Part shown: in pieces, positions 5,573 to 15,779 of the stretch
Position numbering within the stretch: the first letter of the stretch is position 1
How the letters are laid out: each line of letters starts with the position of its first letter
DNA from: Candidatus Poribacteria bacterium
Lineage (GTDB): Bacteria > Poribacteria > WGA-4E > WGA-3G
Assembly: GCA_026706025.1 (NCBI GenBank)
Contig: JAPOZO010000040.1
Location: 1-42,689, forward strand
Direction: 5' to 3'
Length of the DNA stretch: 42,689 nucleotides
Translations under genes and position numbers: made by a program
The notes under the pieces: model-generated
What the model was told of the DNA's origin: nothing
Seen by the model: the letters and a program-made list of their open reading frames with translations, nothing else
Database searches by the model: none

Positions 5573-5628
5573 GTAGGAGCGAGCTGTGCTCGCGATCTTC
5601 GTAGGAGCGAGCTGTGCTCGCGATCTTC
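5573..5628. repeat. tandem pair of a 28-bp REP-like unit
   Basis: Two identical 28-bp units lie head to tail (5573-5600 and 5601-5628). Each contains the stem GCGAG-ctgtg-CTCGC. Directly after the second copy an imperfect hairpin follows (5624-5646, TCTTCCGAT against ATCGGGAAGA). Such GAGC-rich units resemble repetitive extragenic palindromes; no REP-associated transposase is visible in the window. Confidence 0.8.
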
Positions 5629-12837: not shown

Positions 12838-13764
12838 TTGCCTTCAAACAGAAAAGAGACTATCGGGACACCCCCCAAATCCAACGTTATCAGCGAGGAG
12901 CCGCACGGGAAAATTATTGCTCTCAGTCTGCTCCTCGCGTTTCTTTGGGGTGGGAATTCGCCCGCAATAAAAGTCGGTTTGCAAGATTTCCCACCGATGG
13001 CGTTGGCGTTCTTCCGCTTTGTGATAGGTCTTGTTGTTGTCGGCGGTTGGTCGCTCTTTCGCCGTGTCTCACTCGGTTTGCGCCGTGGCGAATTTCTACG
13101 ATTGTTGCTACTCACAACGATTTTCATACTTCAAATTATCTGCTTGAATACCGGAACCGAACTCACAACAGCATCTCGCTCTACTATTTTTATTAACGTC
13201 TACCCATTTTTCACAGCACTCTTCGCGCATTTCTGGATTCCCGGCGAACGCCTCTCTATTACAAAGACATTAGGGATCATCGTCGCCTTCAGCGGTGTTT
13301 TCGTAACCGTCGCCCCGCACCTCGGTGAAGGTGAAACGAGCATCCTCGGCGACATCCTTGTCCTCATCAGCGGATGTTTCTTAGGGTTACGCGTCGTTGT
13401 AACAAAACTACTCGTTCAAGCCATTCACCCGTACCGGCTCTTGGTCTGGTATCTAAGTTTGAGTCTACCGTGTTATGCCGCAATGAGTTTCCTACTCGAA
13501 CGCGGTGAACCGATGCAGCTGACACTTTCAAGTGCTGTTGCGCTTCTTTATCAAGGTGGTGTTATTGCTGGCTACTGTTTCTTGGCGTGGACTGCAATAC
13601 TTGAGAGATATAGTGCGAGTAAATTGGTGGTACTTTTCTTTGCTACACCGCTTTCGGGTGTTTTGTTCAGCTATCTGGTCTTAGGTGACGAACTCACACT
13701 GAGTCTGCTCGTCGGCGCCCTTCTCGTGGCAGGTGGGATCTATCTCGTAAACATGCGGCGTTGA
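12838..13764 (+). CDS. EamA/DMT-family transporter, ten membrane helices
   Basis: A 308-residue inner-membrane protein made of two EamA repeats, each with about five helices. The first repeat has the characteristic LAFLWGGNSPAIKVGL and MALAFFRFVIGL stretches. The second ends VVLFFATPLSGVLFSYLVLGDELT. Such proteins usually export amino acids or other small metabolites. The likely start is TTG at 12838, preceded by GAGG 7 nt away. No ATG or GTG occurs before the first membrane helix, and a later ATG would delete it. It follows the oxygenase in the same direction and could move that enzyme's substrate or product, though nothing proves a link. Confidence 0.88.
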   Translation: MPSNRKETIGTPPKSNVISEEPHGKIIALSLLLAFLWGGNSPAIKVGLQDFPPMALAFFRFVIGLVVVGGWSLFRRVSLGLRRGEFLRLLLLTTIFILQIICLNTGTELTTASRSTIFINVYPFFTALFAHFWIPGERLSITKTLGIIVAFSGVFVTVAPHLGEGETSILGDILVLISGCFLGLRVVVTKLLVQAIHPYRLLVWYLSLSLPCYAAMSFLLERGEPMQLTLSSAVALLYQGGVIAGYCFLAWTAILERYSASKLVVLFFATPLSGVLFSYLVLGDELTLSLLVGALLVAGGIYLVNMRR

Positions 13765-13803: not shown

Positions 13804-14324
13804 TTATGGTGGATCAATCAGGACATCTAAGGCGGTTTGACCATCGGTTTCAGGATTGAACGTGAGCAACCCTTCGTTTTGTGCGGCTCGTAGGAGGCGT
13901 TTATCGGAACTGACCAGAACCAGATTATCTCCTTCTATCCGTAGTTCATTAGTTCTATCAAGCGCACATTGTAGGAGGATAGCGTCGGTACTGTTGATCG
14001 AATGGTTTTCAATAAGATCCCACGAATCGGTTATTTGATCCTCGGTTTGGAATACTTGCTCCACCTCATCGCGATCAACAAATTCAGTTTCAAAGTGCTC
14101 TCGGAGCTGATTGAAATGCGTTGTGGTAATTTTACCTTCATTTCTCCGGCGCACGAAGACGAAAATGACCTCGCCTCCACCGTCAAACAAACAGATCATA
14201 CGTTCTAAAGGAACACGTGTGAAGAGGTAGTTAACCAATTGTGTCCCTTTTTCTTCTACGTACCGTTTGGTTCTTCTACGTACCGTTTGGCGTATGCACT
14301 TGCGTCTAACCAGAAGAAATTCAC
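13804..14324 (-). pseudogene. PIN-domain (VapC-like) ribonuclease toxin, frameshifted by a 20-bp tandem duplication
   Basis: The natural start is GTG at 14324, overlapping the stop of the upstream antitoxin gene as GTGA. From there the frame gives MNFFWLDASAYAKRYVEE, a classic PIN N-terminus whose D7 is the first catalytic acid. It then runs into the second copy of an exact 20-bp repeat (14251-14270 and 14271-14290) and stops after 22 residues. Removing one copy restores one frame of about 166 residues, continuing KGTQLVNYL. That frame includes the later acidic positions in STDAILLQC and SSDKRLLRAA. A 184-residue open frame through the region exists only by reading the 5' part out of frame, and it lacks D7. 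The toxin is therefore probably inactive. Confidence 0.85.
14251..14290. repeat. exact 20-bp tandem duplication inside the PIN gene
   Basis: TTCTTCTACGTACCGTTTGG occurs twice in direct succession with no mismatch. Twenty is not a multiple of three, so the duplication shifts the PIN reading frame. Perfect identity suggests a recent event, a slipping repeat, or an assembly error. Confidence 0.97.
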
Positions 14325-14638
14325 TCTCTTCGTTTCTCCCGTTCTTCAATGATAGCACTACTCAAAAGATTGTCCTCTGGGTCTATGCCCTCCTCTATCG
14401 AAAGCTGCTGAAGTTCCTCTGCTGTGAGGGTTTTAGCTTCGGGATCACGTTTTTTGCGTAAAGAACGCCGTCTTTCATTTTGTGCCCAGACTCTTGCAGA
14501 CCGTGCAGCTAAACGTTCCTCAGGTGTAAGAGACTTCATGAAGGGGGCTTGAAGTTTTTCTAACTCCTTCTTTACCTCTGCTAAATCCCATTCAAGTTGC
14601 TCTATTTTTATGAGCAGTTTTGTGATTGGCGGTATCAT
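14321..14638 (-). CDS. probable antitoxin partner of the PIN toxin
   Basis: A 105-residue protein, largely helical and highly charged (EWDLAEVKKELEKLQ; RRRSLRKKRDPEAK), with no DNA-binding motif I can name. Its stop codon overlaps the toxin GTG start by 4 bp, the standard coupling of VapBC-like pairs with the antitoxin first. GGAGAAAACTT before ATG 14638 is a good SD. The antitoxin role is inferred from position and size; the sequence resembles no antitoxin family that I recognise. It appears intact although the toxin is broken. Confidence 0.7.
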   Translation of the reverse strand: MIPPITKLLIKIEQLEWDLAEVKKELEKLQAPFMKSLTPEERLAARSARVWAQNERRRSLRKKRDPEAKTLTAEELQQLSIEEGIDPEDNLLSSAIIEEREKRRE

Positions 14639-15155
14639 AAGTTTTCTCCATAACTGTCAATTTTAAAAAAAATAATCGTCTCGGTAACAGGACCGGTAGG
14701 TTCGGTTTTGCGGCGTACACGCCCATATGCGACCTGCATCCTAACCGAACCGGGTTTTGCCCGGAAACCCTAAAAACTTCACAAACCTCTTTAGTCCCAT
14801 AGGGACGCTATGTTTATAGCAGCGGTTCAAACAAGCCGATGAGCCCTGTAAGGGCGGCATGTGTATAAGCACTTGAACACCATGAAAATCGCTAATTTGA
14901 TGTCATCCTTGTGTGGTTTACAGATTCCGAGAAACCGTGTTGTTCCATCAAGCCTGAGGTGCTTTATGGGTGTTCGGAGCCCCAGTTTATAAATCTCCCT
15001 TTCGCTCATTTTCAATAGATCCATTCTCAGTGCACTCCTGTAGCCATGTATGTGGATTTTCGACGCGGGCGCGAAGTTGCGAATGGAAAAGGATGTTGGG
15101 TTGCCGTGAGGCAAGGCACAAAAACCTTGCCTCACAGATAGATAGAGGATGAAAT
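14639..15155. other. 517-bp region without a confident gene, holding several stem-loops
   Basis: From left to right: GGTTCGGTT (14699-14707) pairs with AACCGAACC (14743-14751), immediately followed by CCGGG-ttttg-CCCGG (14750-14764). Two related hairpins, GTCCC-ata-GGGAC (14794-14806) and GCCCT-gta-AGGGC (14843-14855), are each followed by a CG-c-ATGT-TATA pattern, so they are two diverged copies of one unit. A perfect 11-bp stem lies at 15106-15135. A 102-codon minus-strand frame (14827-15135) runs through these structures and does not look like protein. Confidence 0.6.
15106..15135 (-). terminator. perfect 11-bp stem-loop downstream of the 207-residue gene
   Basis: GTGAGGCAAGG (15106-15116) and CCTTGCCTCAC (15125-15135) are fully complementary around an 8-nt loop. 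It lies 20 bp past the stop of the minus-strand gene. There is no T-run, so it may protect the mRNA end rather than end transcription by itself. Confidence 0.5.
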
Positions 15156-15779
15156 TTATTTACTGCCAGACTGCGCTTCCATCGCTGGATAGATTTCTAT
15201 ATCAGAACGCGTGATGAGTACACCGGTATAGAACGTTAGCCAATCCCCGCAAAGTTCGATAGACATAAACTCATCATCTCCGCTCGCGTATTCGTGGAGT
15301 TCAACATCGAACCTCTCTTGTCCCTGAGCATCTGTAACGGTAAGGGTTGCAGGCACAATATCCTGTCGGCTGTATTCAAGGGCGATGTCTTCGTCTTCAT
15401 TATCCGGGTCTGGAAAATAGAGCGTCATGAATTCAGGCAGCGGATCAGCGAGTTCACATTCATCATCAACAATCCATCGGGAAATCTCATACTCGTCCGT
15501 GGTTCCTGCAACATGGTCAACGCCGAGTACAACTTCTTCCTCCGCGTCGCGAACATGATACATATAGCGACGCAGACTGGCACCCTCATACTTCTTTCGT
15601 GTGACAAGCTTGAAGGCGTGTGAAGTATCTCCAGTCTCCTCATAAGTGATGATGTCGGAGAGTTCAATCATGCTGTCAATCGGAATGTCAACCAACTCAT
15701 GCCGTTCCGGCTTTTTAGGTTCGGTATCTTTCTTTTTCCCGAATAGGGATCTTCCATTTTTTCTACCAAATAGTGCCAT
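15156..15779 (-). CDS. conserved-looking acidic protein of unknown function, 207 residues
   Basis: The first 25 residues are basic (FGRKNGRSLFGKKKD). The remainder is acidic and beta-rich, without signal peptide or membrane segment, and includes the aromatic stretch RWIVDDECELADPLPEFMTLYF. I do not recognise the family with confidence. The style, a short basic front and then a domain about a modified charged protein, recalls DUF2491/DUF4178-type proteins found beside secreted low-complexity proteins, but this is a guess. It begins 8 bp after the stop of the upstream membrane-protein gene, so the two are almost certainly one operon and probably work together at the membrane. Confidence 0.75.
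   Translation of the reverse strand: MALFGRKNGRSLFGKKKDTEPKKPERHELVDIPIDSMIELSDIITYEETGDTSHAFKLVTRKKYEGASLRRYMYHVRDAEEEVVLGVDHVAGTTDEYEISRWIVDDECELADPLPEFMTLYFPDPDNEDEDIALEYSRQDIVPATLTVTDAQGQERFDVELHEYASGDDEFMSIELCGDWLTFYTGVLITRSDIEIYPAMEAQSGSK

What the first reader, a model, noticed from the sequence alone, without database searches (positions are those of the whole stretch)
14251..14324. PIN toxin switched off by an exact 20-bp tandem duplication
The sequence shows two identical 20-bp copies in direct succession inside the PIN gene. Reading from the GTG that overlaps the antitoxin stop gives a canonical PIN N-terminus that terminates in the second copy. Deleting one copy restores a full PIN domain with all its acidic residues. 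Because the copies are perfect, the event is recent or reversible by slippage. It may therefore be phase variation of a toxin, a fresh loss of toxicity, or an assembly error. The antitoxin remains intact, as expected if the toxin were lost first.
Basis: partly seen in the sequence, partly recalled or inferred. Interest (0 to 1): 0.75.

Follow-up and report, generated by a model that had tools for sequence, protein, structure and literature searches.

The report
Recently broken PIN toxin, antitoxin kept
In a Candidatus Poribacteria genome, a fresh 20-base duplication has knocked out the toxin gene of a toxin-antitoxin pair; the same toxin has been lost many separate times in related bacteria while its partner antitoxin gene is kept intact by selection, so this looks like ordinary toxin loss rather than an on/off switch.

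Summary
Window 14251-14290 holds two identical adjacent 20-bp copies. The PIN frame that starts at the GTG overlapping the upstream stop (14324) ends at TAG 14258-14256, inside the second copy; the rest of the PIN (13804-14250) is intact but out of frame. No homologue aligned across the site carries a second copy; the four closest (91, 81, 80 and 73% identical over the C-terminal part) have one copy and an open PIN, so the duplication is derived. It is recent: the copies are identical, share window-specific substitutions, and the toxin body shows no relaxed selection. Phase variation is not supported: only one state is seen and no relative repeats this array. Assembly error cannot be excluded without reads, but no other gene is broken this way in a 1.53-Mb sample of the genome. 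The wider pattern is more informative: of 30 loci with this antitoxin in 59 genomes of the family, 9 keep an intact PIN and 21 have it broken or deleted, by at least ten different junctions, some at the very same site. The antitoxin stays open in 18 of the 21 and stays constrained (dN/dS 0.09-0.21) where relatives share one ancestral toxin deletion. Best reading: youngest of many independent toxin losses.

The parts
14321..14638 (-). Upstream partner gene (putative antitoxin), 105 aa, intact
   Evidence: ORF; homologues at 64-92% in 30 loci of the family; no Pfam, NCBIfam or PADLOC family reaches its cut-off
14256..14324 (-). Surviving 5' end of the PIN gene: GTG overlapping the antitoxin TGA, 22 codons, TAG in the second repeat copy; holds the first catalytic-type Asp
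   Evidence: Translation; D7 invariant in 14 homologues
14271..14290 (-). 20-bp copy 1 in gene order (CCAAACGGTACGTAGAAGAA on the minus strand)
14251..14270 (-). 20-bp copy 2 in gene order, identical to copy 1; shifts the frame and contains the TAG
13804..14250 (-). Rest of the PIN gene (148 codons plus stop), open but out of frame with the start; keeps the other three acidic residues (E45, D107, D134 of relatives)
13804..14358 (-). Longer open frame (184 aa from GTG) that fuses an out-of-frame N-terminus to the PIN body; lacks the first Asp and has no homologue in that form
12838..13764 (+). Convergent EamA-type transporter gene; marker of the same site in relatives
   Evidence: tblastn at 78-94% next to this locus in G052, G068, G072 (PIN present or broken) and G012, G051, G003, G048, G023, G053 (PIN deleted); name from knowledge of the family, not searched
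15156..15779 (-). 207-aa gene on the other side; second marker of the same site
   Evidence: found next to the locus in G003, G048, G068, G072

Best explanation
This is a two-gene operon of type II toxin-antitoxin layout: a 105-aa upstream gene overlapping by 4 bases a PIN-domain nuclease gene of about 166 codons. A natural, very recent 20-bp tandem duplication early in the PIN gene shifts the frame and ends translation after 22 codons, so no PIN nuclease is made while the upstream gene is untouched. It is the youngest visible case of a recurrent process in this bacterial family: the PIN gene is repeatedly broken or deleted while the upstream gene is kept by purifying selection. Shown: the duplication, the frame, its derived state, the repeated losses, and the constraint on the upstream gene after loss. 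Inferred: that the PIN protein is toxic, that the upstream protein is its antitoxin, and that the retained antitoxin still has a job, such as neutralising related toxins that arrive or persist elsewhere.
For:: duplication and broken frame; homologues aligned across the site have one copy; the four closest (91, 81, 80, 73% over the C-terminal part) have an open PIN; stop-to-PIN-body distance is 50 bp in L010/L012 and 70 bp here, exactly 20 more; both copies carry the window's own bases at 4 positions where the closest relative differs, so the event came after those substitutions; on the window's branch the PIN body has 1-3.3 nonsynonymous against 6-15.7 synonymous changes (three outgroups), pairwise dN/dS about 0.15, i.e. 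no relaxation; in 1.53 Mb of this genome no other gene is seen broken by a short perfect duplication; 21 of 30 antitoxin loci have a broken or deleted PIN with different junctions, many with PIN remnants, six at the same site between the antitoxin and the same transporter; orphan antitoxins sharing one ancestral deletion (G062/G066/G069, G001/G018) keep dN/dS 0.09-0.21 with dS 0.5-1.3; the intact homologue is a PIN protein with the D/E/D/D set, pLDDT 90.9, VapC structures among the top matches.
Against: No toxicity or antitoxin activity has been tested. Reads were not available, so one-copy molecules in the population or an assembly fault cannot be excluded. The duplication has no edge microhomology, so simple slippage between short repeats is not an obvious origin. 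Some of the 21 losses may be shared by descent, and some come from fragmented assemblies.
Confidence: 0.74

Rival explanations
1. Phase variation: the 20-bp copies contract and expand in the population and switch the PIN toxin on and off.
For: Copies are perfect and adjacent, so precise loss of one copy is mechanically possible; phase-variable tandem repeats are known in other bacteria (PMC12817950, there in promoters). The PIN body is still under constraint. The orthologue in G072 has an 18-bp unit repeated at least four times up to an assembly gap.
Against: Only two copies; no homologue has an array at this position; only one state is known; the G072 unit is a multiple of three at another place and that gene also has a TAG. 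Relatives show one-way deletions. A constrained body is equally expected from very recent loss.
Confidence: 0.12
2. Assembly error: the real genome has one copy and the PIN is intact.
For: The genome is a draft in 103 contigs and reads cannot be seen; every close relative with an intact PIN has one copy.
Against: In 1.53 Mb of the same assembly about ten short perfect two-copy arrays were found and none other is seen to break a gene, although random errors would mostly hit coding DNA out of frame; this one falls in a gene that relatives have lost repeatedly. Single-contig relatives also show perfect short duplications.
Confidence: 0.11
3. The PIN is still made from the two-copy gene, by ribosomal frameshifting or from another start codon.
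For: An open frame of 184 aa runs through both copies from GTG 14358.
Against: No X XXY YYZ slippery heptamer lies before the TAG; the only one found lies after it. The alternative frame replaces the first beta strand and its invariant Asp.
Confidence: 0.03

Closest known systems
VapBC (type II toxin-antitoxin with a PIN-domain toxin)
   Same: Two overlapping genes, small upstream partner, PIN fold with invariant D/E/D/D; VapC20, VapC11 and VapC15 structures are among the fold matches.
   Different: Antitoxin matches no known family; PIN matches Pfam PIN_4/PIN only weakly and no PDB sequence; here the toxin gene is broken.
Orphan (solitary) antitoxins, e.g. the Klebsiella pneumoniae survey PMC7192599
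   Same: Antitoxin genes without a functional toxin, many at the site of the intact pair; proposed as remnants, anti-addiction genes or regulators.
   Different: Here junctions with toxin remnants and post-loss constraint across species are documented at one site; that survey was within one species complex.
Phase variation by tandem repeats (e.g. PMC12817950)
   Same: A perfect tandem repeat that changes gene output.
   Different: Two copies only, no second state seen, no conservation of the array.

Membership tests
VapBC type II toxin-antitoxin | PIN-domain toxin with conserved acidic quartet | tested here: met
   Intact homologues: D7, E45, D107, D134 invariant in 14; PIN_4 or PIN in most members; pLDDT 90.9 and PIN/VapC structures on top. 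In the window allele the first Asp is cut off from the rest.
VapBC type II toxin-antitoxin | Small antitoxin gene directly upstream, overlapping or coupled | tested here: met
   GTGA overlap in the window and in most close relatives
VapBC type II toxin-antitoxin | Antitoxin of a known VapB-type DNA-binding family | tested here: not met
   No Pfam, NCBIfam or PADLOC family reaches its cut-off for P0002; therefore called VapC-like, not filed as VapBC
VapBC type II toxin-antitoxin | Toxin is a growth-inhibiting RNase neutralised by the antitoxin protein | not testable with these tools
   needs expression tests
Orphan antitoxin | Antitoxin ORF intact, no functional cognate toxin at the locus | tested here: met
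   for the window; for relatives
Orphan antitoxin | Retained function after toxin loss | tested here: inconclusive
   dN/dS 0.09-0.21 in pairs sharing an ancestral deletion argues for it; pairwise method on short genes
Tandem-repeat phase variation | Copy number varies within the species | not testable with these tools
   no reads and no second strain available
Tandem-repeat phase variation | Array conserved or recurrent at the same position in relatives | tested here: not met
   single copy in all relatives aligned across the site

The most novel reading that the evidence does not exclude
The small upstream protein is not merely a leftover antitoxin but a selected stand-alone protein (an anti-addiction or regulatory protein) in this bacterial family, and its PIN partner is a disposable part that is lost over and over; the window catches the first step of one such loss.
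Probability: 0.35. Interest if true: 0.6.

Novelty: new member of a known kind. Interest (0 to 1): 0.38.

Why it matters
Orphan antitoxins are common, but it is rarely clear whether they are relics or kept genes. Here one site shows an intact pair, a freshly broken toxin, internal deletions and clean deletions in related genomes, with an antitoxin that stays constrained after the toxin is gone. That makes the question of what an antitoxin does without its toxin directly testable. The duplication itself is an ordinary loss-of-function mutation.

Tried and rejected
Programmed frameshifting: no slippery heptamer before the stop. Alternative start: loses the first Asp. Microhomology-mediated duplication: no extra matching bases at the edges. 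Toxin relatives on mobile elements, as a direct target for anti-addiction: none in IMG/VR, phage or plasmid collections, so that function stays a guess. Same-species genome with another copy number: the nearest found is 91% identical. PDB sequence search: nothing. Paper search for measured contraction rates of 20-bp repeats gave nothing usable.

Full report
Observation. The window contains two identical adjacent 20-bp copies at 14251-14290, far beyond chance (no such array in Markov shuffles). On the minus strand the GTG that overlaps the upstream stop codon reads a typical PIN start, VNFFWLDASAYAKRYVEE, and runs into TAG 14258-14256 in the second copy. The rest of the PIN, 13804-14250, is open in another frame. 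The upstream gene is intact, 105 aa.

Identity. The genome is a draft of 6.27 Mb in 103 contigs; its nearest named relatives are Candidatus Poribacteria MAGs. Intact homologues of the PIN carry the invariant acidic set D7, E45, D107, D134, match Pfam PIN_4 or PIN weakly, and are predicted with confidence as a PIN fold (pLDDT 90.9) whose best solved matches are PAE0151, PAE2754 and VapC proteins. The upstream protein has no family above cut-off; it is called antitoxin here from its position, size and overlap only.

Derived and recent. The closest relatives, L123/L140 (91% over the C-terminal part), L124/L141 (81%), L127/L142 (80%) and L128/L143 (73%), have a single copy and an open PIN starting at the same overlapping GTG. 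The distance from antitoxin stop to PIN body is 50 bp in L010 and L012 and 70 bp here. The two copies are identical and both differ from L123 at the same four bases, so the duplication came after those changes. By inference, no difference in 20 bp between copies gives a rough 95% upper limit of 0.075 neutral substitutions per site, against dS 0.32 between the window and its nearest relative. The PIN body shows no relaxed selection on the window's branch (1-3.3 nonsynonymous to 6-15.7 synonymous changes, three outgroups).

Is it an artefact? In a 1.53-Mb sample of the same genome short perfect two-copy arrays occur about once per 150 kb; apart from the window's own two, none with a unit not divisible by three is seen to break a gene, by my reading of the frames. 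Two single-contig relatives show similar arrays. Reads are needed to be sure.

Context. In 59 genomes of the family, 30 loci carry this antitoxin at 64% identity or more. Nine have an intact PIN behind it (G070, G052, G065, G042, G057, G073, G068, G019, G016). In 21 the PIN is broken or gone: the 20-bp duplication here; an 18-bp array plus assembly gap and TAG (G072); loss of the PIN start (G040); truncation (G058); internal deletion leaving both ends (G023); antitoxin fused to the PIN tail (G011); short PIN-start remnants (G051, G001, G018, G015, G005, G062, G066, G069, G053); or almost nothing (G012, G003, G048, G056, G045, G014). Six of these (G012, G051, G003, G048, G023, G053) lie at the window's own site, next to the same convergent transporter, where G052 and G068 have the intact PIN. 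The junctions differ, so at least ten losses are independent.

Antitoxin kept. The antitoxin ORF stays open in 18 of the 21 (not in G058, G005, G053; a few have altered C-termini). Median pairwise dN/dS is 0.13 among orphans and 0.15 among paired ones. The sharper test uses orphans that share one ancestral toxin deletion: G062/G066/G069 give 0.09-0.16 and G001/G018 0.21, with upper bootstrap limits of at most 0.38 and dS 0.5-1.3, while their PIN remnants have gained indels. So the antitoxin appears to have been kept by selection after the toxin was gone. Several genomes with an orphan antitoxin show no PIN of this family at all (G003, G015, G023, G053, G062, G066), so neutralising a resident relative is not a general explanation. 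No such PIN was found on known phages, plasmids or viral contigs. A sister antitoxin subfamily shows the same tendency: of 86 loci, 42 have a full PIN, 5 a partial one, 10 are followed by another antitoxin and 29 have none, some at contig ends.

Verdict. The duplication is real in the assembly and inactivates the PIN. Recent, ordinary toxin loss is the best reading; phase variation and assembly error are possible but each unlikely. Orphan antitoxins are a known phenomenon (PMC7192599, PMC7354431). What is worth following is the repeated one-way loss of the toxin with a constrained antitoxin.

Noticed in passing
window 14648-14798: Copy of a dispersed repeat with about 60 partial copies (76-96% identical) elsewhere in the genome, lying directly upstream of the antitoxin start.
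   Followed up: no
window 5573-5628: Perfect tandem duplication of a 28-bp unit (GTAGGAGCGAGCTGTGCTCGCGATCTTC), also without extra matching bases at the edges.
   Followed up: no
L225:819-858 (G000:C15): Another perfect 20-bp tandem duplication of unrelated sequence, about 130 bp downstream of the matched part of a PIN paralogue (C15:274-690).
   Followed up: no
L184 / L157 (G072:C113), about L184:1920-2095: The orthologous PIN gene holds an 18-bp unit repeated at least four times and running into an assembly gap.
   Followed up: partly
L014, L015, L016, L017, L018, L019: A PIN subgroup preceded by a gene of about 400-450 codons ending in a GFDFLR-type motif instead of the small antitoxin; possibly a different partner.
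   Followed up: no
G069:C69:61644-62674 and further antitoxin pairs listed: Two or three antitoxins of the sister subfamily in tandem before one PIN or none, as if toxins between them had been lost.
   Followed up: partly
L153, L154, L158, L160: Orphan antitoxins followed by a gene MAK..VEVQFTLPIDE.. of about 100 aa that resembles UPF0175-type proteins (resemblance from memory).
   Followed up: no
L162, L165: Orphan antitoxins in G001 and G018 followed by what looks like a RelE/HigB-type gene (MRHTHPRELQIYQTPNGREPFTEWF..) (resemblance from memory).
   Followed up: no
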